Assembly (NCBI GenBank): GCA_021234155.1
Contig: JAJEKV010000080.1
Span: forward strand, 1,038,182 to 1,102,181
Direction of reading: 5' to 3'
Source of the DNA: Isoetes taiwanensis
Taxonomy: Eukaryota > Streptophyta > Lycopodiopsida > Isoetales > Isoetaceae
DNA length: 64,000 bases
The translations under genes and the position numbers were made by a program. A model generated the notes under the pieces. It ran no database searches. It saw only the letters and a list, made by a program, of their open reading frames with translations, and was not told the origin of the DNA. Every line of letters begins with the position of its first letter. Position 1 is the first letter of the stretch. Positions 1,693 through 53,757 of this stretch are shown piece by piece.

Positions 1693-3910
1693 TGTTGATT
1701 GTTATATTAAAAAAATTTTTGGGCCCTTTGGGCCCTAACACAAGCCTTCAGGCACTAAGGATGGCATATATGCATGTAACAATTTTAGAAACACTTATGC
1801 ATGTAACAACTTTAGAAACACTTGAGCATGTAATCCAATTTCAGAAGACAAGTCTAGAATGGCATACATACATAATTTGATTCTTGAAAACAATAAGTTA
1901 AGCACAATATAAAGAGTCAATTTTTGTGCAATTTAAGTGTTTTTTTTTTTCAATGCATAAACCGCAACCATGGCAAATCCATCTAAACCCATCTGAACCC
2001 ATCCCTTTCCCAAGATCTCGCCGAGAAATAATTTAAGCTTTTTAAGCTCTTCATGCATGCCCGGCATATGTATAAACTGTGGCATTTCAGAAAATCAAAT
2101 CATGACCAAGCATTTCCTTAGAGCTCAATTCTTGCCGAGGAGAAATTCATGTTCAAAGATATCTTGCAAGAATCACATTCTATGATACCCAATCCTTCTC
2201 GGCCATTTTTTCAAGTACTTCTTGTGCCTCATTAATATAACCTAGATGGGTGCAACCTTAGTCCTGAACAAGTATGCAACCTAGTCCTATAGCAAGTCCT
2301 CAGAAAAATTCTACCAACTAGCAACCTCCTTCACAACACGCTAATATAGGATAATCATGTGCGAGTGGTATATTTTGTTAAACAAACTAGACTAGAAATG
2401 AAAGAATAATACTTTCCATTCACTACAACATAAATTTTGGTTGAGTCATGCAAATTATCGATATGAATTGGAAGCCATCTTTTGTTGTAAACAAATCAAA
2501 CTTTTGCAAAGATATAATAGGTCCTTGCTAATATTGACATCATTTCTTGGAAGCCATCTTCTATTGCAAACAAATTATCCTGTAGAATAGCATATAACAG
2601 CCCCGGTAATATTTGACATCATTTTTGTATAGTATGTTTTACATTTCATCTTTCCACCTCCAACCAAGAGCTGAAATGTAGAGTCTTATATGCTAGAGTA
2701 TTAGGCACAGAGAAAGCAACATACATGGCATATAGTGATATTGCTTTTGCCACCCTCCTGTCATTCAGCTTCAAGTAATAATGGAAGAAATTCCTTCGAA
2801 AAACGGTAAGCGTGAGAATGAGCTTAACATGTAAATTCCCCGACACAATAAGATAGTATGTAAATTCTGACACAATAAGATAGTGCTACTCACTCCTCAT
2901 GGCATTTCTTCAATTGCAAATTGCTGGAACAACTGAGAACGACCAAGACTTATCTGAAAGGATTTCAAAAGCTAATATGGCTTTGGATAACCTGCAATAC
3001 AAAAAGGATATGGCTTATAGTAATATAAGGATGAGAATGGGATCCGAAAGGACCGGATTCGATCCGAGTCTTTGTGTTTGTGTCGGCGCGATTCTTTGTT
3101 GTCGGGAACAAGGTCGGAAATCATGTAGCGCGTCCACAAGTTATCAGAAAGGCAGGCTCGGGGTCCTAAGTCAGTAGCAAAAATTGAGATATGCGGAGCG
3201 CCAGCCAGGACGGTCGGTACGTAAGGCTCCACATCAAATGTCCGAACAATACCTCAGCTTGTGTTGCTCCTCGCTCCTATAATCAAGAAACGTGCATAAA
3301 ATAATTGATTTAAGCACAAAACATTGAAGTGCGATTATAAAACCTGTGGTTGCCTCAAGTTGATCCCGAGACACAACTTTAAAATCACGGACATCAACCT
3401 GTTTTGATGTTTTATCAGAAGTTGACCTCAACGCTACTTACCCGCACACCACATGATATAATTAAGCATACTTTTTGCAACACAGCGTAATTGGTTCAAT
3501 GAAGTTTGCCACCTTTTCGAGGTCGAGCAACTAGATCACGAATCTCTGGATCTTCAAAATCGCTCCCAAACATATCATTTCCCTCATCATGCCATGGCGA
3601 CTTGGTAATTGGGGTTGCAACCCTTTTCCCATTAAATGTGGCTGCAAGCAACTCAAGTTTAATATCACTGCCCTTATATACAGGCCCGACCTTTACCAAG
3701 AGCGCCAGCATCTAAAACAAACATCCCTAATCTCTTTACGCTACTACCCGCACAAACAAAAGCAAACTCTAAATCGCCTTGTTGCCGCAAGTCGCTTGAA
3801 ACTGGCTTTGATTTCATACACCCACCAGACCCAACCTCTCGTCCGACTAAGGAGTTCATCCTTTGCCTTCACCTGCCGATCCCTGAAAAAAAAAAATAGA
3901 ATCGAAGAAG
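1693..3910. other. Intergenic with unrecognised short frames
   Basis: Non-coding sequence. From about 2970 to 3925 the base composition is more balanced and open frames overlap on both strands. An example is a 71-codon frame at 3496-3711 (-) ending RDLVARPRKGGKLH. This could be a gene fragment, but I recognise no family and see no splice pair, so I name no gene. Confidence 0.4.
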
Positions 3911-40609: not shown

Positions 40610-40970
40610 TAAACCCATTCAGGAAAGTTCACGTTTGTAAGCCACTCTGGAGCAAGCACAGTTGATTATTTGTTGGCTAAAGATGCACGTATGATTAAGG
40701 ACTTCTGGATTGGTGAAAAGCTTCCAGAATCTGATCATAAACCCCTATTTATAATGCTTAAAACATGTCATGAAACTGATTTATAGCAGCAGCCCTTTCA
40801 TCCTAAGATTAAAGTGAATTACACCCTACATGAAGCATATAAAAAGTGCATTGAAGATTTATTGGAACAAGCCACATGGTCAGGACAATTTGTAGCAGAT
40901 GCAAACCATTTTACGGGGTTAATATTGGATGCTGCAAAGCAAACATTTGGTGTGACCAAAAGGCGCATTC
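40610..40970 (+). mobile_element. LINE, left part (endonuclease C-terminus), split by 10.5-kb element
   Basis: Translation gives GKFTFVSHSGASTVDYLLAK, ESDHKPLFIMLK (the S-DH block ending LINE apurinic endonucleases) and ILDAAKQTFGVTKRRI at the breakpoint. One stop (after CHETDL) is present. The rest of the LINE resumes at 51496 with HGRPCNAWWDKECK in the same frame. The 5' end appears truncated at about 40610. Confidence 0.8.
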
Positions 40971-40995
40971 AAGCATAATTTCATTAATTGTGGAC
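40971..40995 (+). repeat. Left terminal inverted repeat of 10.5-kb element
   Basis: Starts AAGCATAATTTCATTAATT and ends GTGGAC; pairs with 51471-51495. Confidence 0.85.
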
Positions 40996-41239
40996 TTTGC
41001 CTCCATATGACTCCCAAATGGACCCGATTTTTTAGAATATAAGGGTTTTATTTAGTAGAATGATGCAAAATTTCGAAATGCGTACAGGTAGGTGAGATGG
41101 CAGGCCTTGTATCTATTAAGCAAAAAAAGTGCCAACCGAGTTTGTGTCTCGCCCAAGCGCCTTCTGTAGACGTGGTCTCGCCACAGCAGCCGGCATTCGC
41201 AAATCTGCATAGTATAGATTCATAGTCGTGCCAGTCAGA

Positions 41240-41572
41240 ATGATCCGAACCAGGCGCAACGATGGATTCACAATGAGCGAAATGCAGTGCCATATCGCCG
41301 AGCCAATATTAGCTCATGCGAATCAGCTTCAGGTTGAGGTGCAGAACGAGATAAACCAAAATGGCACAGAAGAAATGAGACACCAACTCAGGAAGCTCCT
41401 TCGTCGTGGAGAGTTGATGAAGGATGGCGATGAGCCGGATCACCTCAGCAGGGTAGAGCTAGGAAGGCTGCTTGATTTCCTTGAAACGCCATATTTACAG
41501 GGCAGAAGCTCTGAAGAGGTTGCTGAAAATGGAGGATGTTTGGCTGCACAACAGTTTCCGGTCGTTATTTAA
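41240..41572 (+). CDS. Hypothetical 110-residue frame inside the element
   Basis: ATG at 41240 opens MIRTRRNDGFTMSEMQ, followed by a charged, probably helical chain (EEMRHQLRKLLRRGELMKDG, LSRVELGRLLDFLETPYLQG) to a TAA. Composition looks protein-like, and it sits near the left end of the element downstream of the minus-strand gene. No family recognised. It could be a single exon or the remnant of a third element gene. Confidence 0.3.
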   Translation: MIRTRRNDGFTMSEMQCHIAEPILAHANQLQVEVQNEINQNGTEEMRHQLRKLLRRGELMKDGDEPDHLSRVELGRLLDFLETPYLQGRSSEEVAENGGCLAAQQFPVVI

Positions 41573-41783
41573 GAAGCTTTACAAGAAGGAAAAGAGGCAG
41601 CGTGTGGCTTTGGTAACGAAACTCATCCTGACAATGATATAATAATGTTGTAAGGATGTAATAAGCATAGTCAATATTATATAATGTAACGTACCTGAGT
41701 AATTCCTGAGGGTGTGCTCTTTGATCTCCACTGTTTCTGCACCTCCACTTCACTTCATGTTTGATGACGTTTACTCTGCTAGT

Positions 41784-41918
41784 AAATTGGGCGCCCGCCC
41801 AATTTGTGGCCGAGGATAGCGAAGGTCTCAAGTTAACAGCAACAAGATTGGTTGTGAAATAAATTAAATTAAAGGTTTTAGTTTCTACGGGTAAGCAAAT
41901 TGGGCGCCCGCCCAATTT
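41784..41918. repeat. Element palindromes 1 and 2
   Basis: Two 22-bp copies at 41784-41805 and 41897-41918: AAATTGGGC, centre GCCC, GCCCAATTT. They lie between the left end and the 3' end of the minus-strand gene. Confidence 0.95.
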
Positions 41919-42950
41919 GGTTAGCAAAGTAAACTAGAGAATTATAAGACAAGGAAATGAGTGCAACGTTATAATTTCTGAAAAAAGAAGTAATTACAAT
42001 TGTTCATAACATATTTCACATATTTTGAAATCATAAATTGCTCATTCGTCTGGAGGCACCTCTTCTCAATGATCCTTGCTGGGTTCTTCATGCTGGGGCG
42101 GAGGTTGTTGTGCTGCCTCTTTGATCTCTTCCATTTTTTGCCTAAAATCTTCGGCCCCCAGTTCCTCATTCTCCTCATCTGCACCCTGATTGTCTTCGGT
42201 GTTCGCCGCCTCTTCCTCTACATCTTGACTATTTAATGTGTTGGGGACCACATCCTCTCCATCCAGATTGTCCCCTTCCTGTGTTTCCATGACAATGACA
42301 GACTCAGGATCCCTAGCAACCTCTTCCTCAAACTTTGAGGTCGCCTCAATAATGTCCTGAGTATTCACCAGTGCGGTCCCTGCCAGTGCATTGATGTTGT
42401 CTTTTCTTCTCCTAAATAGTTCCAAATCCTGAGAGCCTAGGGCCGCTGCCTTTTTGAGCTCTATTTGAATCGAGCTCTTGTCATGTCTCAGAATGGATTG
42501 CACTTCGTTTATGGTTGTAGAGGAGAACGGACAAGATGTCTCAGGAGCAGGAAGCTGAGGCTGAGGAACATTTTTGGAAGTAGAGGCCTTCTTCTTTCCC
42601 TCCTTGATCTTTGGTAGTGCCTGAGCTCTTGATTTTTTCTCGTCTAACATGACATCGAGTTGCTCGAATATCTGTACAAGCTTAATTTCCAGCTTCTCGT
42701 CTGTCTCAAAAGACAATGTTTTATAGCCCTCGCACACTGCATCTCGGCTAAAAGCACCACCGGAAAAGAAGTCGAGAACAGTGCAATCTTCCAACATCAA
42801 CTTCTGTACTAGATAGGTGCACGTCTTACTTTCCAACTGATTATGCACGAGTACTCCTCCCCCACCTGCTGCACCCTTGTCGCACCAAGGATGATACAGT
42901 CAATAAGCTGCAGGGAAAACAAATGTTAGAAACATTGATGGTCAACAACA

Positions 42951-42972
42951 AAATTGGGCGGGCGCCCAATTT
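42951..42972. repeat. Element palindrome 3, inside intron 42908-42983
   Basis: AAATTGGGC, centre GGGC, GCCCAATTT. It occupies 22 of the 76 bp of a predicted intron with GTATGC donor and CCCTGCAG acceptor. Confidence 0.9.
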
Positions 42973-44118
42973 AAAATGCATACCTGCTGCACACTCATGA
43001 TCAGGCAAATTCTTTTCGATGTCCTGTTTTTCTCGTAAATGCTTGGGAAACTTAGCATATTGCTTTGGATGGTTGGAATTGCCGAAGCAAATATTTATTT
43101 CCTGTACAGATGGCGGAGCCGCTGCGTCTCTGGCAACATACATTAGCAGGACAAGACATTGCAGCTCTCGAACTCTAGAGGTAGAAGCAGTTCTGGCCGG
43201 GGGGTCCTGGTAGGAACCAACCCAAACACGGCTGCCACCGTCTATTATCTTCATGGCGGATAGGCACTCATTGAGGCGGTCCGGGGTAATAAATATAGCT
43301 ATCCAAGAAAGTCGCTGGTCCGCCATCGTCTTTGAGCTGGTCAAGGAATTTTTCATAATCTTCCTTTGGCCATTTCTTTGTATATCCGTCGCATCCAATG
43401 AAGCGGCAGAAGTATTTACCACGCCCACGCACAAACCTCATGGACTAACGTGGAAACACTTGAAAGGTTTGCCACCCTCCTCAACCGCCCAAGAAGATAT
43501 TCGTCTACTTTACTTTGTCAGAGGGACTCCGAAAGCTTTCCTTCTCCATCTCTTTAAGTCCCTACGCCCATCCACCGATACTCTTGGCGAACATAAGCAT
43601 CAGATTCTCTGTGAATATTGGATGAGCTTGCCTCAAGGCAGTCATGTCTTGAAAAGGGAGTTTCTTCACTTCCTTCATGTATCTGACAAGGGCCCGCTCC
43701 ATTGTTCCAATCTTCTTCAGCTCTAAGGCTCTGACTTTCATGGTACGTCTCCCAATATAATCCTTGCTTCCCTTCAGGAAAGTGGTGCCATCCTTGATCT
43801 CCTTCAAAGACCTTTGCAGATCTAGAGGATGCATGGACTTTAATGGGCGACAGGAATTGTTGGTGAAAAGTCTAAGCCTGTCTTTCACTTCAATTCTTTC
43901 TCCCTTCTTGTCCTTCAACCGGTCTTCGTAGAATAACTGGGCAACTTCGGTGCACAATGACCACGATTCGTTATCAAGATATACAAAGTAGTCGTAGTCA
44001 CGCATAGTTGACTTCTTAATCGCTTGCAACGCCACGCTGCCTTTCCAACTCGCATGACACGTAAGGCATTAGATACGGCCCATACACATCATCGTAATTT
44101 GCTTGCACTAGCTGTTCC

Positions 44119-44275
44119 AAATTGGGCGCCCGCCCAATTTCAGATTGTTGACACTCTTTTGGCGCCCACCCTTAATTTCCTGGGTCCCAAATTGGGCGGG
44201 CGCCAATTTGCACTTCGCTCAGTGGAAATTGGGCACCAATTTCCAAAAAGAGTGTCAATAATCAAATTGGGCGGC
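44119..44275. repeat. Element palindromes 4-7, inside intron 44037-44332
   Basis: A perfect copy at 44119-44140, a 21-bp copy at 44189-44209, a shortened copy at 44226-44242 (AAATTGGGCACCAATTT) and a half copy at 44264-44274. All lie inside the 296-bp intron that joins VELIL to VALQAIKK. Confidence 0.9.
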
Positions 44276-45977
44276 TTTTGGAACTGGTGGATAGCACGAA
44301 CTGTCAGAAATAATGGTGGTTAATGCACTCACAGAATAAGCTCCACCGACGGAGTGCCCGCGATTGCCCTTCTTAGGCTTCCGTAGAATGCCCACTTGGT
44401 TTTCAAGCTGCTGAATTTCTTCAAGAATACTTCGTGTATAGTCTTCTTTGTTATGTCATTATTCTCCGGGCCGATTACGAACGCATTTTCGATTCTTTGG
44501 AGATTTCCTGCCAGGACTTGGCATTTCCTTGTGGCATAGAAAAAGAATATCAGTTCAGCCAAGTGCTTCCTTTCAGGAGGCCATGCCAAAGCTTGTGTGA
44601 CAAGCGGTTGAGCAACCGTGTAGTCGTATGGTTGCCATTTACAATCCAAAATTCTGCATTTTGCGAGGTCCTCCGCCTTCTTCCACTTAATTGCTGCTCC
44701 GCACATGCGTGGATCGAACGGCACGACATCAGCATCGAGGGTGCATCCGATGGCTGATAAACGATTAAGTAGAGAGTGTCCAAATGCTCTGGACTTATGA
44801 CCCTACAAGTCATATTTGCCGGGCTTTATGCATCTTGAACACATCGATTTCAATTTGAAGCCCACCCCCGAGGGTAGATTCTCTCCACAGGCTTGATGCT
44901 TGCTATGGCGCTGTGACAACTCATATGCGCTCTCACGTGGACGCCGCCCGGGCCGGATGGAGTGAACTTCACGATCTGCACGGCTAGTCTCCCGTTCTTC
45001 CGGCTAGACAAGGACTCCCTCTCCGAACTATTTGGGCTCTGTGGTGAGATGTGCCGCTTGCGCCTCTTGGACGGACCACCTAAATCTTTTCCTCTGCGCT
45101 TAGAGGGTTCCTCTTGATTAATTGGTCCTCTTACGCACTCACCTCGGCGACCTTTGCTATTCTCGACAATCCAATCAATACAAGTTTAGGGGCAGCTTTA
45201 CGGGAATAGTCAGAAAGGCGTGTCCTCGCCTTCTTTATTCTTTGTCTCTCGGTCTCCATGGCCGCTGGTGCCTGCGCTTGTGATGTCTCACCCTTCTTGT
45301 ATCTAGACTTAAGCCACTTAGTATCGTATACTTTAGGTTGGTTCTTGCCCTGATACTCCGTGAACAGTGCTTTCGATCTGTTCTGTTTGTGTTCTAATAT
45401 CCACTGCCTGACAGCGTAGTAGCCATCCAAGATATCAGTTCTTGATTTGATGCCCGAGCGCTCTAAACTTTCATATGAGTCTAGCGCCCATCCTTTATGA
45501 GCGCAAGAATGTGGGCTTTCCTTTATACTTATGCTTCATCATACATGGCTCGTAATTTCAGAAAGTGGAACTTTATAACGGACGAAAGCCCGATCTACGG
45601 TGTCTTCAACATCGATGAGGAAGTCATCGCTGTTCTCAGGCGAGACCTCCATGTCGATGACGATACCCGCCGAGTTCATTTTCCCTGTCCCTCTCTTGCC
45701 AAAGAAAAGCAAAAGATCCTTGAGGTGGTTTGTCCGGGACCCGTGATGAATATTCCCTATCTCTATGCACCGTACACAATCCTCAAAGAACCGGGCCATA
45801 ACTTCATGGGGCACTACCCGGATGTCGCAAAAACGCTTCTTTCTTCTTCTTCGTTTTGCATCCTCTCTTGCAATAGCCTCTCAGAAATTTGGGTCGGGAC
45901 CGGAACCCCCGAAAGTACCGCTTTGTTCAAGGCCATAATAATTCCCCGCAGAATCGGAAAGTAGTGTTAGTACTTGG

Positions 45978-46335
45978 GAGACTAGGAGCTGAAGAGACGG
46001 TTGTATCATAGAGGCCAATTATACCAATTTGGCCGGATCTCTACGCACACCAAATTGGGCGCCACGCCCAATTTACTGCCACTCAACTCATGGTGAGACT
46101 TGGGGCTGAGGAGACGGTTGTATCATAGAGGCCAAATTGGGCGCCCGCCCAATTTGGCCGGATCTTGACAAGACACCAAATTGGCGCCTACCAATTATCG
46201 CCACCAACTCATGGTGAGACTTGGGGCTGAGGGGAGGAGCATCATAGAGGCCAAATTGGGCGCCCGCCCAATTTACTACGGCCCAAGTCTACCATCCAAG
46301 GAAGTCGTGCTGTCCTTGAGAGTAAATTGGGCGTC
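45978..46335. repeat. Tandem ~119-bp repeat, three units, with palindromes
   Basis: Units begin at about 45978, 46095 and 46216 (periods 117 and 121), sharing GAGACTTGGGGCTGAG, ATCATAGAGGCCAA and a palindrome. They overlap the first codons of the minus-strand gene and extend upstream of it, where its promoter should be. Confidence 0.85.
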
Positions 46336-46345
46336 CGCCCAATTT
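46052..46345. repeat. Element palindromes 8-12, upstream of minus-strand gene
   Basis: Copies at 46052-46074 (23 bp), 46134-46155, 46253-46274 and 46324-46345, plus a decayed one near 46178-46196. They sit just upstream of the minus-strand start codon. Confidence 0.95.
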
Positions 46346-47470
46346 GGTGTGAGGGAGAAGTTCATTCTACTGCCCTTGAGCATAGTTAAGATACCCCTCG
46401 TGATGGAAGGGTACCGTACTGGAGAAAAAGGCCAATGTTGTGCAAAATGAAAGCCCCTCAGGGAAGCAATTCGGTGCCCTATGAAGTTCTCGCATTACGT
46501 ATGCATTTGTGGGGACCAAAGGAGGCATCTAGAAGATGTTAATTTCTCACCACACCCAATTTCCTCTAAGCAAAAGTGGATACTCAATCAGCAAAGCTCA
46601 AGTTTATATTTACACAAAGAGTCCAGCCTTACCTTTGCCTCCTGTGGTGGGGCGAGATGCCATCAACTGCTGAGATTCCTTGGTGTACAGGGGTTCCCAG
46701 GCGATAGGACAATGAACAGAGGAAGGCGCCAACAGGATGGCGACAAGCGGCCGAGAAACACAAGGCGCCAAGTCTTTGGATCCGGGCCGACAAAATGGTT
46801 CGGGGAGTATAGTCTTGGCGACAGGATAGGGATGAGAATGACTTTCCTGGGTAAAAAATATGAAGGCGACAGTGTTAAGCGGAGCAGAAAGCGCCAAGGA
46901 AGCACAGAATTTTCTAAAACTGCAGTCGAGGAGAATGAGGGGAATTTAAAGGGTTATGGACCTTTCATGAGCCGAAGACAAGTGTCGTGCATGTGAGAGT
47001 TTGGACTTTTCAAATAAAAATGGATCGTTGATGGGTTCGAGCGTGAGGAATTAATTGTGGACCTTATTAATAATTGCACGGAGATTTTAAATTTCAAATC
47101 CGTCATTTAAAGGCCGCCCAAATTTAATTCGAGTCATGCACGTGTCGCACGTGTTTTAGGCGGGAAGTTGTGTTTAAAAGTTCCCGGCCGGACATATTAC
47201 TTCGAAATTAGGGGGGGCATTTAACTTTCAAAATAGGGGGGAAATTACATTCAAATTTTGGGGGGAATTTGTGTTTAAATGTAAATGCGCTTCAGACCTA
47301 TTGTTTTTCTAGCACTGCTCCGTTTGGCTACTATCTTTTCTTCAAGACGCAAACATCTTCAGCGCTTCATACTCATGGCCACGAAATCTCCAAAGGTTTG
47401 TGCTGCTCCTCAATTTTATTCATCGTAGCTCGATGTGTAAGTGCTGCAAATGTAATCTGAAGGGATGTAA
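46346..47470. other. Divergent inter-gene region of the element
   Basis: A plus-strand frame at 46481-46996 has arginine-rich, low-information content and no recognised domain, so I do not call it. Two G-boxes (CACGTG) stand at 47139-47144 and 47148-47153. G-tracts follow at 47210-47265. A possible first exon of the plus-strand gene is at 47375-47395 (MATKSPK before a GTTTGT donor). Confidence 0.4.
47139..47153. promoter_or_regulatory. Paired G-boxes in element
   Basis: CACGTG twice, 9 bp apart (GCACGTGTCGCACGTG), between the two divergent genes. A plausible bHLH/bZIP site; the role is inferred. Confidence 0.35.
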
Positions 47471-47605
47471 TCATTCACGCCTGTTCATTCGCACCTCTTC
47501 AAGCACGCCTGTTCATGCACACCTCTTCATTCACGCCTGTTCATGCACACCTCTTCATTCATGCCTGTTCATTCATACCTCTTCATTCACGCCTTTTCGA
47601 TGGCG
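47471..47605. repeat. Minisatellite, ~28-bp units
   Basis: About 4-5 imperfect copies built from TTCATTCACGCCTG and TTCATGCACACCTC. It lies within non-coding DNA or an intron between the putative first exon and later exons of the plus-strand gene. Confidence 0.8.
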
Positions 47606-47872
47606 CCTGTTGAGTTCCTAAGGCGGGTGATATCCTGCCTGTTGACATTTACATAAACTCTAATTTTCGATGCAGTCTGCCCTTTTCCTGAAATTGGTGT
47701 GCAGGAATTGTGTGCCTGTTGTTTTCTCCATGCTCGTTTGTTTGCCCCCAAGAATTACCCTGATAGGTCCACCCTTGTTTGTAGTCGCCCCTTCCAAAGG
47801 CTCGATTGTATTTGTTTTGGGTAGCTCATTCTTCATCGTCGCCTCGCTCGGTTTCATTTACGTTAAAGGGAC

Positions 47873-48219
47873 AAATTGGGCGGTCGCCCAGATTGTCCCT
47901 TTGTGTAGATGACCAGATAGGTGAAATTGGCCGGGTGGGCAAACTGTATCTCAAGTTGTGCCTATTGTGTCTATTCTCAAGTTGTCACACGAATGTGTTT
48001 TCTCTACGGCAGCTAAATTGGGCGGGCGCCGAGTCTCTACCTACTTCACAGCATCTTCTATATAACCATTTAACCAAATTGGGCGGGCGCCCAATTTGTA
48101 AGCGGTCATGGTCTGTTCAGAGCGAGAACCTTTCTTCGTACCCATTGTGAGACTGACTGCATCAATACTAACCTTATATAAGCGCCTCAGTCGGTTCAAA
48201 TTGGGCGGCCGCCCAATTT
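47873..48219. repeat. Element palindromes 13-16, upstream of the 48368 exon
   Basis: A decayed copy at 47873-47894, a half copy at 48014-48029, perfect copies at 48076-48097 and 48198-48219 (the latter a full palindrome with centre GGCC). They precede an acceptor (CTTGTGCAG, 48367), so they are probably intronic in the plus-strand gene. Confidence 0.9.
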
Positions 48220-48367
48220 GCAACAAGGGGAATCTAAAGACCTCATATGTAAAGGCACCCGCCAATTTCATTGTGCGTAAACCATTGAATGGCCATCCCC
48301 CATGTCCTTTGCATTGCTTTCTCGCCTTCCTTACTCGATTTTAACACTACTGAAAATCCTTGTGCAG

Positions 48368-51300
48368 TTGTGTATCTCTACCTTAATGAACATCTAGTAG
48401 CAAAGGGAGTTGTGGGGCAAATGACACAATGCCACTTCAAGGAGATATCGAATGGAGTAGTGAGCGTAGGTGTGGAGGAAGTGTTCGAAGGCCACCATAC
48501 CCTTCCTTGGTCAACTCCAGATGCAAACACAATAGTGGAAGCCAGGGGCTCATTCGTTCTCCGGAGAAGCCAAGATGCCCGTGAGTCGTCTTCTAATGAC
48601 GCCCCCAAAGAAAAAGACAAATGGACGAGAGGTGGGAAAGGAGACACAACCGCCACAAGATATACCTTGCTTGAAAAGGATTGTGAGATATGGCACTCCC
48701 GCGACTCCATTATCGCCGAAAAGGGATTCATATCTTTCACCGCCCCGGCGATGCGCTTTGTGACCGCCGGGTTTCAAGTTTGTGGGAGTATCTCAGAATC
48801 GAAGGTTTCCCTCCCTTTTCTGAAGTGAACATCCGCTGCCGGGGGTTGCTTGCAGTGCCGGGCCGGGATGCTCGTGAGATGGAGCAATGACCTCGTCCGT
48901 TGATGGAGTAAAGGTCTCGAGATATTGACCGCAAAGACCGCAACAGAAGCGATATTGTGTCCAGCCGGGAGCTCGTGAGCATCGGCACCCAAATTATGAG
49001 AAACGACATTACACTTTTCATTCCCCGACAGCCCAGGAAGGTTGTAAGGCCACCAAAGCTTGCTCGCCTCACCACTCGAGAATGCTATCCTCGCCATTTA
49101 GGAGGACCTTGTGTTGCAAGAATAGGTGTTGCGTCAAGTTCTCTACGAATCAAGTTGTTAACATGCGAAAAGGAATTCCTTTGCCATGAAATCAAGTGAT
49201 AGGGTTACTTTTGTTTATGACATGTTCGCCAATAACATGAAAGGTCGAAGAGTGGGACGACCGGGTGCCGCAGGGGAATCTCGCTTTGGCGAAAAGGGCG
49301 GGTACCTTGGTCTCGGATCTCAAAGTCGGCGATCCGAAATGGAAGGCCCAATTTCTTGAGGGTGCACGCAAGGCCTAACATGGTAACCGTGGCACCTTGA
49401 AGCCTCGCCCTCGACGCTGGCATGTGAGGCCGTTTTCCATGTTTGTGAGGGAGAACGGTGAATCTTTGCCCCACCGCAGCAGGAGAAACGAGGAGGGGAT
49501 AAGAGAGAATGTCGAAGTTGCCCGCAATGTTTACGGTCCAAAGATTCTAGAAGAGGTTAATGCAGAGGTTGTGGCATTGACCGGCAAGAAGGTATCACCG
49601 GCAACGTTTTCATAGAACGCGGAGGCGGAGCTTTCCCGACGTTAGTATCGCGAAAAGAAAATTGCATTCTCCAAATGCGATACATGTGAGGTGATCCGCA
49701 CGGTTATCAAGACCAAAGATGAAGGAGAGAGGAGGATGTTGCATGATGAAAGAAGAGCGCATAGACCGGAGCAGCCTCGTGGTCGCATTACGCATCGGGT
49801 CGTGGAAATTATACTCCCACGTATCCCGCCAATATCTTTGTATTATTCACGACAAAATGGATCAAGCCAAAACAATGATTCCAAAATTGCAACAACTGTG
49901 AAGTCTCTCCGAGACTTGACAAGCTCAAAACGACATTGACCGGTGCATTGACTTATGGTCATGGGAATGGATCCTATGGAAACTTTGCCTGGACTTATGG
50001 CCGATGACTCTAACTTCCATGTAGGTTCTTTGAATAGCATCTTGAAGAGATTAGAGATGGGGCACGAAGTATGCGAGGAGGCCACCGCCGATGCTGAATC
50101 ATCTGCCCCAAAATGGGTCTCCTCATTGCAGACACGGCGGGCCTTGGAGTCAAAGTTGTCACTATCCAATACCAAAGATACCGCTTAATTTGCCACAGGT
50201 GAGAGGGACCATCATTGAAGCCTCTCGCCCAAGATACTTTATTCCCCTTTCAAAATGGACAACGATCCGGACGGAGAGAACAAGAATAGGTACGCCTTCT
50301 CCTATCTTTCTTACCTAGTATATCTTGGTGTGTTTGAAGAGATTGAGCTAGGGTTCATGATGCCCGGTCACACACATGATGATATCGATGCCTTGTTTGG
50401 TAACTTCTCTACATCTTTAAAGAAGGTCGAGGTGCTCACAATGCCGAACTACTATATGAATTCCACAAATGCAACTTGAATACACCCGTGTCCTATATGT
50501 TGTTGACAAAGTTCGATTGGAAGGGTTTTATAGAAGGCTACATACCGGATGGGGATGATAGATTGACAGGTCATACAACCCCTCTAACTTTCAGATTCGC
50601 TATGAATGGTGATTGGTCAGTCATATATTACAAAACTCGACCCACTTACTTGGATTGGTTGCCTGCTGGTGGAATAAAGATGTGGAAAGAAAAAAGAGGA
50701 CGGAAGCCCATGATGCCGCTTGGATATCCTAAGTCGCTTCCTCCCAAGAAATCGGTGAAGGACCTTGGCCTGCTGCATAAACAAGATCCACAAGCATATA
50801 TTGCATTGGGTTGCTTGTTCAACTAGTAACAAGGGTGCTCCGAAACGCCAAGTACTTTCGGCGCGATTCCGCCCACGATTGAATATTGGATGAAACTCTT
50901 TGCAAGAACTCGTGAACATCAGCAAATGACGGAAGGCACTTATAATGACTTTCGGCCACGTACTAGGCAAGCACAAGCTCCACCTCATGTACCTGTAGTG
51001 GTGGAGCCAATTGCTACTATCACTCCTCCTTATGTCGGCCCCTGGAAGGATAAACCTGTACCGGAATTCAACCCATACAAAGATTTGAAGAAAGGTATGT
51101 TTATTATGGCACGCCCTGATGATGTGTTGTGCCCAACTTGGGTGGGCCTAGCTACTGAGGACCCACAAATGGATGATAAGAAGGAGAACTTTGAGACTAT
51201 TCTGGTGACTTGGTGGGAGCCAATCCCAGTGAGGAACCAAGTCTACCCAGCTAATTATGCCAATTGCTGGAAGAAGAGATGGAGGCCAACGACTGCAAGT

Positions 51301-51417
51301 GACCGCATAGAAGTGGAGACTATCGACTACGCTTGGGAGCACCTAATACTATTAAGATACCCGTGCATGCTGCTGAGGCATATGCAGCACTCGCAGGGGA
51401 TGTCAACTAGTGTATGA
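48368..51417 (+). pseudogene. Putative transposase with GHTH-DID region (DUF7869-like), frameshifted
   Basis: Likely the element's transposase. After an acceptor at 48367: LYLNEHLVAKGVVGQMTQCH, similar to small domains in plant transposon proteins. Further on, in shifting frames: LCIIHDKMDQAKTMIP (about 49830-49880), TLTGALTYGHGNGSYGNF, ADDSNFHVGSLNSILKRLE (50000-50060), then MDNDPDGENKNRYAFSYLS and GFMMPGHTHDDIDALFGNFS (50255-50420), FDWKGFIEGYIPDGDD and DWLPAGGIKMW (50510-50690), and a C-terminal GMFIMARPDDVLCPTWVG ... TWWEP block ending at TGA 51417. The HDKMDQAKT, DN-ENKNRY and GHTH-DID blocks in this order are what I recall for plant and protist DUF7869 proteins, plausibly an RNase H-like fold. 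At least five frame changes make it non-functional. The family name is from memory. Confidence 0.65.
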
Positions 51418-51470
51418 AAATGAGTCATTCATCCAAGTGTACTAAAAAATGGTCCATAAATTCAGGTATT

Positions 51471-51495
51471 GTCCATAATTAATGAAATTGTGCTT
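51471..51495 (-). repeat. Right terminal inverted repeat of 10.5-kb element
   Basis: On the minus strand it reads AAGCACAATTTCATTAATT then ATGGAC, matching 40971-40995 at 23 of 25 positions. Confidence 0.85.
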
Positions 51496-53757
51496 ATTCA
51501 TGGGAGACCATGCAATGCATGGTGGGATAAGGAATGCAAGATAGCTAGAAACAGATTGCCAAAAAGCTGCATATGTAAACCAAAATGGTACAAGCAACTC
51601 TTGAGAAAAAAGAAGCGCGATTACTTCAAGAAAAAGCAAAGAGAATTGACAGAGCACCTCAAACATACACCAAAAGCCTTCTGGGATATGTTTAAGGGCA
51701 GATTTGAGCGCTCCAGCTTAAGGGAAGATGCCTTGATGCAACTAGTAAAAGATCTCTATGAAAAGAGTGGTCAGAATAGCATGCCAAGAATGGCCTCCAG
51801 TGCATGCATTGCTTTTAAAGAACATGAGGTGAAGGAGATATTAAGTGACATGGCTAATAATAAAGCATGTGATTTGGATGGCGTGTGTGTGGAGCTCCTA
51901 AAATGGGGCGGACAGAGCACTTTGTCCACACTTACAGGCTTGATAAATGAAGGGTTCAAAAGTGGTTTGCCTGATAGTTGGAGGACCAATATGGTCCATC
52001 CAATTCACAAAGCAGGTGACAAGAAGGATGTAGCAAATTACAGAACAATTCTAATTGGAAATACATTTGCTAAAATTATGGGCAGTCTCCTGGACTATAA
52101 ACTTAAATCTTGGGCAGAAGAACATAGCAAGCGCTCTCCATACCAGGCTGGTTAGAAGAACATAGCAAGCGCTCTCCATACTAGGCTGGTTTTAGGACGG
52201 GGCATAATACCTTAGACCATGCCCTTGCACTTCGAGTATTAGTGGAGAAGGCTAGAAATCCAAATGCAGCATTGTTTGTGGCATTTATTGACTTTGCAAA
52301 AGCATTTGACTCTGTTCCAAGAGATAAACTGAGCGAGAGAATGATACAGATTGGGTTCTCTGAAGAAATTAGAGAAGCCATAGCTCAGTTATATTCAGAG
52401 GTATTGATTAAAGTTTCTTTGAATTTAAGCACATTAGTGAGAAGCACGGTGGGGGTACGTCAGGGGTGCCCGTTATCTCCAACTCTATTTGGCATATTCA
52501 TTGATGAACTAGAAGAATGGCTGAAAAATCAGTCTCTATCAGGCACACAAATAGGTACATACCTTATCCAGCTCTTATTATATGCAGATGATGTGGTGTT
52601 ATTAGCCAACAAGAAGCAAATATTGCAGAAGCACTTGGCTAGAATTATTTTGCATGGCAAAGGGGATGAAAGTGAATGTGGCTAAATCCAAAATCATGAT
52701 ATTTGGAACCAAGAAGAGACCCAATTTCTTTTACCAGGGACTTACACTTGAAATAGTGGACTGCTACAAATATTTAGGCATTGATTTTGCTTCAAAATAC
52801 AATTGGAAGGAATGTGTAAAAAGAAGAGTCATGGGAGGTAAATCAGCTTTGTATAGTATGCTTACGAGGTGTCATAAGGCATCTCTAATAGATTGGGAGC
52901 TGAAAAAAATGCTTTTCAAAACATTAGTACAAACAGTATTGCTATATGGAACTCCGGTATGGGGTCCAGGATGCTCAGCAAGGCTATGGAGCCAAATAGA
53001 AGCTGTGCAGAAAATGTTCTTGCGGGAGGAGCTGGGAATCAAAGCTCAAATGCCATATGCAATCATGCTTGCAGAAGCTGGGATGTTCCCCTTAGAGCTT
53101 GAAGCTCTATACCAAGCTGTAAATTTTGTAAATAGGCTTAGAGAACAGAGTCCAGCTCGAATCTCCGATCAAGCTATGGCTAATGCTGAGCAAGGGTGGC
53201 TAAGAGATTTTTGGAATTGGGCTAATAAATGGGGGATGTCAGAAGCCAATTGGCCTAGTGACAAAAAGGAGGCAAGAGCCCTATTGAAAAGACTTGCAAT
53301 AGATTACTTATGGGTTGCCCCAGGTAGTAGAATGGTACACTATAGAAGAGAAGTCAACAGCATTATAGATTACAAAAGCACTTATGTTCAGATATTTCAA
53401 AAGCATATAAACAAATTATAGCCAGGTACAGAACCAGTTCTCATCGTCTGGGAATTGAAGTAGGCAGGTGGTTCAAAGTTCCCATGGGAGACAGGAAGTG
53501 TGAGATATGTGGTTCGGGAGATGTAGAGGATGAGGCACATACATTTCTACATTGCTCAGCTTATGAGCATATTAGAGATGAGTCCAGCATTGTTGAATTT
53601 GGAACCATATTTGTTAGGAGAGTATATAAGCAAGGTGGATACACACCGATCATTTTTGATAAAGTTGTAAATATTAGTGCTCCATGGCCTCTCAAGGTCC
53701 TAAGTGAGCATTAGATAGATAGATAGATAAATAAATAAATAAATAAATAAATAAATA
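51496..53757 (+). mobile_element. LINE, right part (reverse transcriptase to 3' tail)
   Basis: Continuation of the LINE begun at 40610. After the insertion: HGRPCNAWWDKECKIARN; polymerase blocks NKACDLDGVCVELLKWGG, PIHKAGDKKDVANYR, FVAFIDFAKAFDSVPRDKL, VGVRQGCPLSPTLFGIFIDE, YADDVVLL; thumb NVAKSKIMIFG and YKYLGIDFASK; and a C-terminal CEICGSGDVEDEAHTFLHC knuckle. Both catalytic motifs (FAKAFD, YADD) are intact, but the frame is broken by a 38-bp tandem duplication at about 52121-52196, a slip near 52654 and another near 53425. It ends in (GATA)n(AATA)n at 53712-53757. Same clade as the 31-kb LINE and different from the L1 copy. Confidence 0.85.
53712..53757 (+). repeat. (GATA)n(AATA)n LINE tail
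   Basis: About four GATA units followed by about seven AATA units directly after the last coding stop (AGTGAGCATTAG). Confidence 0.9.

What the first reader, a model, noticed from the sequence alone, without database searches (positions are those of the whole stretch)
40967..51499. A 10.5-kb transposon of unassigned superfamily with precise boundaries and an in-frame empty site
ATTC repeats, a 25-bp terminal inverted repeat (23/25) and exact in-frame repair of the host LINE (TKRRI + HGRPCNAWWDKECK) define the element base by base. It carries a GHTH-DID transposase-like gene and, divergently, a long gene with a methyltransferase-like region. A 4-bp target duplication with AAGCA ends and this gene pair does not match a plant superfamily I know.
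Basis: partly seen in the sequence, partly recalled or inferred. Interest (0 to 1): 0.92.

Follow-up and report, generated by a model that had tools for sequence, protein, structure and literature searches.

The report
Plant-type transposon carrying a histone-H3-like tail
A large jumping gene in a plant-like genome encodes a protein containing an exact copy of the first residues of histone H3 and carries a repeated palindrome shared with its related gene families, which suggests it may have its own tool for acting on host chromatin.

Summary
40971-51495 is a DNA transposon with 4-bp target duplications (exact in 8 of 10 end pairs) and AAGCA...TGCTT ends; it is multicopy (389 left-end and 877 right-end candidates, 40 scored each). 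Five LINE copies 93-98% identical to the joined flanks show the empty site. The window copy lacks about 1.85 kb; four of five copies read end to end are 12.5-13.0 kb. The plus-strand gene matches Pfam DUF7869 (E 2e-21), whose invariant Asp residues fit a DDE-type transposase; I found no paper naming it.

The main result was not in the finding. The minus-strand gene encodes a long protein (1,197 residues as pieced) without detected relatives. Near its start it carries MARTKQTAR, histone H3 residues 1-8 after Met: exact in 14 of 19 intact starts from four gene families (b-d 51-59% identical to the window's). Between families, codons 2-8 are saturated at synonymous sites but nearly unchanged in amino acids. 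The next residue is hydrophobic, never K9. A conserved first exon makes the motif internal unless the second AUG is used.

A palindrome, AAATTGGGCG-NN-CGCCCAATTT, is arrayed in noncoding DNA of all four families (1014 exact 24-bp sites genome-wide, control 0).

Best reading: an autonomous transposon with a self-encoded, VANC-like chromatin (anti-silencing) system; function is inferred.

The parts
40967..40970 (.). target-site duplication ATTC, left copy
   Evidence: single ATTC in the joined-flank query that other LINE copies match
40971..40995 (.). left terminal inverted repeat AAGCATAATTTCATTAATTGTGGAC
   Evidence: shared start of genomic copies
41240..41628 (+). remnant of a small left-end plus-strand gene, cut by the internal deletion; 167 residues in L019, interrupted after 125 in L015
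41627..41631 (.). point where about 1.85 kb present in other copies is missing from the window copy
42066..42907 (-). last exon of the long minus-strand gene; holds the SAM motif-I-like stretch VLDFFSGGAFSRDAV...ETDE
42908..42984 (-). short intron containing one palindrome (borders read by eye)
   Evidence: same position with a palindrome in family d (L088) but not in C1033 (L086)
42985..44112 (-). third exon region, broken by frameshifts in this copy (borders approximate)
44113..44318 (-). palindrome-bearing intron (borders approximate)
44319..45936 (-). second exon (broken here) with the FWIVNGNHTT region of other copies; Met at 45934-45936
45910..45933 (-). place of the H3-like ARTKQTAR codons; decayed in the window copy (reads ALNKAVLS), exact in L011, L015, L019, L023
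45937..46632 (-). first intron carrying the promoter-proximal palindrome array; its acceptor reads CTGCGGGG here where intact copies read CTGCAG
46633..46663 (-). predicted first coding exon (MASRPTTGGKG) followed by GTAAGG
41784..41918 (.). palindromes at 41784 and 41897
44119..44210 (.). palindromes at 44119 and 44189
46052..46345 (.). palindromes at 46052, 46134, 46253 and 46324
47873..48219 (.). palindromes at 47873, 48015, 48076 and 48198, upstream of the transposase gene
48289..50218 (+). upstream exons of the transposase gene, broken by frameshifts; a stretch near 48380-48560 recalls DUF8039 by eye (no Pfam hit for this ORF)
   Evidence: PF26133 occurs with PF25273 in P0002 and P0024
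50249..50449 (+). Pfam DUF7869 match (GHTHDDIDALFG), transposase-like core
   Evidence: E 2e-21
50450..51417 (+). C-terminal part of the transposase gene
51471..51495 (.). right terminal inverted repeat GTCCATAATTAATGAAATTGTGCTT
51496..51499 (.). target-site duplication ATTC, right copy

Best explanation
Shown: a high-copy DNA transposon with defined ends and 4-bp target duplications, carrying a DUF7869 gene, a gene for a long protein with a conserved H3(1-8)-like segment, and dispersed palindromes that also accompany three further families of the H3-like gene. Inferred: DUF7869 is the DDE/D cut-and-paste transposase; the long protein binds the palindromes in the introns and promoters of the element; there the H3-like segment engages host H3-tail enzymes or readers and protects the element from H3K9/CHG silencing. 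It would thus work like the VANC anti-silencing proteins of Arabidopsis VANDAL elements, through a different protein.
For: Ends, duplications, empty site. DUF7869 E 2e-21; 64 relatives; in 35 of them D309, D312, D434 and D474 are invariant and GHTHxDID nearly so. MARTKQTAR exact in 14 of 19 intact starts; A1, R2, K4, A7 in 19 of 19; codons 2-8 between families pS 0.81-1.24, pN 0.011-0.145. Palindrome (at most 3 mismatches): 113 sites in 72,107 bp of six copies against 0 in 53,505 bp of window outside the element and 0 in 76,860 bp of flanks; present upstream of the start in single copies of families b, c and d (3 of 3), spaced 70-84 bp; 1014 exact 24-bp sites genome-wide, reversed-pattern control 0. 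VANC motifs likewise sit in introns and upstream regions as tandem repeats (PMC5735166, PMC10398659, passages). CG and CHG contexts are the change hotspots between copies, as expected of a target of plant-type methylation.
Against: No binding, expression or chromatin data. An exon-1 AUG is in frame with the H3-like segment in families a, b and d and in 2 of 3 family c copies with a recognisable exon 1, so the segment is probably internal and A1 not free unless the second AUG is used. Nothing shows which protein binds the palindrome; a host factor could. The palindrome is kept between families, while VANC targets diverge; in family a its spacing is irregular (29-161 bp). Five of 19 starts differ from H3 at one or two residues. 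The DDE fold was not tested. That families b-d are transposons with DUF7869 was not shown: their ends were not read, and by my reading of the lists only 2 of the 150 scored DUF7869 hits lie within 15 kb of a scored H3-like-gene hit (only the best-scoring hits are listed).
Confidence: 0.5

Rival explanations
1. The H3-like segment is a K9-less pseudo-substrate: it occupies the active site of H3K9 methyltransferases (the K9 position holds V, L, M, A or I) and inhibits them, as H3K9M does for G9a and EZHIP for PRC2. This is a sub-model of the best explanation with a stated target.
For: The residue after R8 is V 12, L 3, M 2, A 1, I 1 of 19, never K. It would work for an internal segment. PMC6513997 states that the methionine of H3K9M occupies the G9a active site (passages).
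Against: Strict conservation of A1, R2 and K4 is not needed for a K9 enzyme; V and A are not established potent inhibitors (recalled).
Confidence: 0.2
2. The palindromes are operators or replication sites bound by the transposase or a host factor, and the H3-like protein acts elsewhere, for example in target choice on chromatin.
For: Palindromes lie near promoters and in introns; no DNA-binding domain was identified in the H3-like protein.
Against: In the window they are absent from the outer 800 bp at the left and 3.2 kb at the right of the element, where transposase sites would be expected, and they stand just upstream of the H3-like start in all four families.
Confidence: 0.3
3. The H3-like segment is a relic of a captured H3 start without function.
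For: It includes the Met, as an H3 first exon would; transposons often capture host pieces (recalled).
Against: Synonymous saturation with near-invariant residues between families.
Confidence: 0.05
4. The element belongs to a known superfamily with 4-bp duplications (Ginger, Chapaev, Sola, Academ) and only looks unassigned.
For: Those superfamilies also make 4-bp duplications (recalled).
Against: The only transposase-like Pfam match is DUF7869; no integrase-core (rve) hit in the element ORFs scanned, though many exons are broken.
Confidence: 0.15

Closest known systems
VANDAL elements with VANC anti-silencing proteins (Arabidopsis)
   Same: element-encoded long protein plus short motifs repeated in the element's introns and upstream DNA, with copy-to-copy changes in number
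   Different: 4-bp instead of 9-11-bp duplications (the latter recalled); the motif is a palindrome kept between families; an H3-like segment; no MULE transposase match found
DUF7869 proteins (named records in Ceratodon, Physcomitrium, Riccia and Mytilus)
   Same: same Pfam domain; P0002 and P0024 also with DUF8039
   Different: 25-44% identical over the aligned part; their elements, ends and duplications were not studied here, and the H3-like partner protein was not found in the protein database
Histone mimics (G9a, EZHIP; influenza NS1 recalled)
   Same: a protein that is not a histone carries a tail-like segment
   Different: here an exact H3 1-8 on a transposon protein, without K9, conserved between families
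ParB-DNA methyltransferase fusions of phages and bacteria (recalled)
   Same: a G-N-H-T motif region followed by a SAM motif-I-like stretch, by eye
   Different: no profile supports either domain; the catalytic motif was not seen

Membership tests
DUF7869 (PF25273) proteins | Pfam profile match above cut-off | tested here: met
   76.9 bits, cut-off 26, E 2e-21; in 14 control genomes the family rings in 0
DDE/D cut-and-paste DNA transposon | terminal inverted repeats and fixed-length target duplication | tested here: met
DDE/D cut-and-paste DNA transposon | RNase H-like catalytic fold | not tested
MULE/VANDAL | 9-11-bp target duplication (recalled) | tested here: not met
   4 bp in 8 of 10 pairs
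MULE/VANDAL | short motifs repeated in the element's own noncoding regions | tested here: met
   passages
CACTA, hAT, PIF/Harbinger, Tc1/mariner, piggyBac | their terminal motifs and duplication lengths (recalled: CACTA ends with 3 bp, 8 bp, 3 bp, TA, TTAA) | tested here: not met
   AAGCA ends and variable 4-bp duplications
Ginger | integrase-core (rve) transposase | tested here: inconclusive
   no rve hit among the element ORFs scanned with Pfam; many exons are broken, so a miss is possible
Histone H3 | N-terminal ARTKQTAR | tested here: met
   14 of 19 exact; its position at the very N-terminus is unsettled
Histone H3 | K9 and the histone fold | tested here: not met
   residue 9 hydrophobic in 19 of 19; no histone Pfam hit in P0001
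Beta-class DNA methyltransferase | SAM motif I followed by an acidic residue | tested here: inconclusive
   VLDFFSGGSFSRAA...EIDE in L086 and VLDFFSGGSFCRAA...ESDE in L088, but no profile or PDB hit
Beta-class DNA methyltransferase | catalytic [DNS]PP[YFW] | tested here: not met
   NTSARF at the expected place in L085, L087 and L019; L011 and the window read NTSPAS and NTSAAS before a frame break; placement by eye
ParB/Srx domain | profile match | tested here: inconclusive
   0 hits for A2 in Pfam and PDB; resemblance by eye only

The most novel reading that the evidence does not exclude
A previously unnamed superfamily of transposons carries a sequence-specific chromatin effector: a protein with a K9-less histone H3 tail that is brought to a conserved palindrome in the element's own introns and there decoys the H3K4/H3K9 machinery, so that the element escapes silencing. 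It would be the first element-encoded exact H3-tail mimic known to me.
Probability: 0.3. Interest if true: 0.96.

Novelty: new variant of a known kind. Interest (0 to 1): 0.86.

Why it matters
How transposons counter host silencing is understood in few cases; VANC is the one I found in the papers searched. Here one element offers a protein, a defined palindrome with 1014 exact genomic sites and a nine-residue stretch identical to the start of histone H3, all directly testable. If the H3 segment is a decoy, a transposon has built a histone mimic against the H3K9/CHG loop. The element also places DUF7869, a domain absent from the papers searched, in a mobile element with defined ends.

Tried and rejected
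Homologues of the minus-strand protein: none at E <= 1e-3 among 5.8 billion proteins, for the first 485 residues (the 7999 candidates sharing most words were scored) or for residues 335-1000 of the pieced 1197-residue protein (8000 candidates scored); none in viral contigs (5 stretches matched a pattern, none confirmed); for the NGNHTT region none in phages. DUF7869: no match in phages. The palindrome is absent from viral contigs. ParB and methyltransferase readings found no profile support. The PDB profile search with the DUF7869 alignment gave only two chance-level rows (E 0.43 and 1.5), and that with P0001 one (E 1.2). A free H3 N-terminus was my first reading; the first exon made it uncertain. 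A literal 'decayed copy' reading of frame breaks is unsafe: changes cluster at CG and CHG sites and a few complex changes recur (TGCTG to TCTTTG at five places), so part may be miscalls at methylated sites; most of the 1474 complex events (1170 distinct) do not recur between places.

Full report
Boundaries. The element is 40971-51495, flanked by ATTC. Its ends pair over 25 nt with 23 matches. In the host genome (1.658 Gb, 1110 contigs, unnamed) 40 left-end candidates of 389 were scored: the window itself, 38 that begin at query 2-5 and one at 8. Of 41 right-end rows (40 scored of 877 candidates) 39 end within five bases of the element end, one at 283 and one is a fragment. In 30 right-end loci the end was located by pattern: TGCTT in 29, TGTTT in L058. 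Four-base duplications are exact in 8 of 10 end pairs; L013 and C1065 fail. Joined LINE flanks are spanned by five LINE copies at 93-98% and 17 more at 74-83%. The insertion is therefore real and exact.

Completeness. Ten copies were fetched. Compared with them, the window copy lacks about 1.85 kb at 41629 and has many frame breaks. Five copies have both ends in the fetched DNA: 10,839, 12,484, 12,576, 12,652 and 13,031 bp. Complete copies also hold a small left-end gene (167 residues in L019, interrupted after 125 in L015) and an 80-residue ORF intact in L015 and L019.

Transposase. ORF 50219-50479 matches DUF7869. In the alignment of 35 of them ten columns are invariant, among them D309, D312, D434, N435 and D474, in motifs DKMDxAKT, MDNxxxxNKN and GHTHxDID. 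I infer a DDE/D enzyme; the fold was not tested. No paper in the library holds DUF7869 or DUF8039. The genome has 9902 first-look candidates for the family; 150 were scored, all above the cut-off, and none of 14 control genomes rings. So DUF7869 is a large family here, of which this element is one branch.

H3-like protein. In L011, L015, L019 and L023 (4 of the 10 fetched copies) the second exon of the minus-strand gene starts MARTKQTAR; L025 has ARTKKTAR; L009, L013, L021, L027 and the window are changed there; L017 gave no match in this region. A genome search with this protein scored 88 of 4489 candidates (95 rows, 37-100% identity). I picked 20 whose match begins at or near residue 1, for spread, and read their starts; with L019 that makes 21. 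L071 and L077 are broken and were dropped. Of the other 19, 14 are exact MARTKQTAR; the rest read ARTKHTAR, ARTKSTAR, ARIKQTAR, ARTKQIAH and ARIKKTAR. The choice favours copies that align at the start. I sorted them by eye into families a (the window's), b, c and d; the b-d members read are 51-59% identical to the family a query. Between families, synonymous differences in codons 2-8 (H3 residues 1-7) are saturated (pS 0.81-1.24) and amino-acid differences are few (pN 0.011-0.145). The residue after R8 is V, L, M, A or I. ARTKQTAR is the start of histone H3 (as in the H3 peptides of PMC3022755, passages).

Start codon. Upstream of the intron acceptor lies a short exon with an AUG in frame: MASRPTTGGKGIIMARTKQTAR (a), MEHRPSKAGNAPMARTKQTAR (b), MESRPTKEGKGVMARTKQTAR and MESRPTKGVMARTKSTAR (c: C930, C907), MEAAAPRGGKGTMARIKKTAR (d). 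One c copy (L080) is out of frame there, and in two further c loci (L095, L096) I did not recognise the exon (junctions read by eye). In L011, L015 and L019 no ATG occurs in the 302 nt before it (176 in L013, 197 in b, 130 in c, 83 in d); the transcript start is unknown. So the H3-like segment is probably internal in the main product. The Met before it is nevertheless kept in 19 of 19, and the exon-1 AUG has a pyrimidine at -3 in the copies read, which would allow some initiation at the second (inference).

Rest of the protein. A region ending FWIVNGNHTT is 66-83% identical between families and reminds me of ParB; no profile agrees. A SAM motif-I-like stretch, VLDFFSGGSFSRAA, is kept, but the place where a catalytic [DNS]PP[YFW] is expected reads NTSARF. 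No relatives were found in the protein database.

Palindrome. AAATTGGGCG-NN-CGCCCAATTT occurs 13 times in the window at up to 3 mismatches (10 exact), all inside the element; its half-site AAATTGGGCG occurs 24 times exactly, all inside, and 33 times at up to one mismatch against 4.49 expected. Over six copies there are 113 sites in 72,107 bp and none in 53,505 bp of outside window or 76,860 bp of flanks (this figure includes spacer Ns and some overlapping flanks). As far as the genes could be read they lie in introns and between genes. One copy each of families b, c and d was read 1.5 kb upstream of the start: 7, 3 and 4 sites, spaced 70-71, 73-84 and 74-80 bp, none in shuffles, in flanking sequence that I could not match by eye to family a. 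In family a the spacing is irregular (29-161 bp). Family d also has one in the short intron where family a has one; C1033 does not. Genome-wide there are 1014 exact 24-bp sites, against 0 for the reversed pattern; of the 50 sites listed, 20 lie near scored copies by my reading, and the other 30 were not checked, only a fraction of copies having been scored.

Mechanism. The layout (long element protein, motif arrays in introns and upstream DNA, variable tandem units) is that of VANC/VANDAL (passages of PMC5735166 and PMC10398659). The differences are the 4-bp duplication, the unrelated transposase, a motif kept across families and the H3-like segment. I judge an element-encoded anti-silencing or chromatin system most likely (0.5). 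K9-less pseudo-substrate action (compare H3K9M and EZHIP, passages of PMC6513997) and H3K4-reader or eraser recruitment are its two sub-models. I found no paper on a transposon-encoded H3-tail mimic (listings), which cover open-licence full texts only.

Limits. Families b-d were read only around the gene start, the NGNHTT region and the motif-I region; that they are transposons with the same ends and a DUF7869 gene is inferred, and by my reading only 2 of the 150 listed DUF7869 hits lie within 15 kb of a listed H3-like-gene hit. Differences between copies cluster at CG (0.30 of dinucleotides touched, mean 0.16), CCG (0.45) and CAG (0.43, mean 0.215), and a few complex changes recur, so part of the frame breaks may be miscalls at methylated sites. 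All functional steps are inference.

Noticed in passing
40971-51495 and ten other copies: Differences between copies concentrate at CG and CHG sites, with a few recurrent complex changes such as TGCTG to TCTTTG: methylation-driven mutation or long-read miscalls at methylated cytosines.
   Followed up: partly
G000, genome-wide: DUF7869 is very abundant in this genome: 9902 first-look candidates, 150 scored and all above cut-off, many in open frames, while 14 control genomes have none.
   Followed up: no
L019 element positions about 1,430 (minus strand) and 2,190-2,430 (plus strand), missing from the window: An 80-residue plus-strand ORF (MASLPDRPENIRSFKCYLSYNDI...) and, on the other strand, a similar-looking stretch (...GISLDP...), perhaps an inverted duplicate pair of a small gene.
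   Followed up: no
46633-46663, minus strand, and L079-L081, L093, L094: The first exon encodes a short peptide of a shared pattern (M-x-S-R-P-... in families a and c); the TTGGK of family a recalls H3 residues 10-14 by eye.
   Followed up: partly
L019 element positions 989-1160: Four palindrome variants with right arm CGCCCACTTT or CGCCCAGTTT at 33, 45 and 72 bp spacing, an example of local tandem growth.
   Followed up: no
47471-47598: Tandem array of 14/28-bp units (TCATTCACGCCTGTTCATGCACACCTCT) inside the element, outside the palindromes.
   Followed up: no
L013, roughly 0.6-1.3 kb upstream of the H3-like start: An inserted piece bounded by CAGGGTTGCCCTTAAGG and CCTTAAGGGCAACCCTGG with GTCCTATC on both sides, likely a nested small inverted-repeat element.
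   Followed up: no
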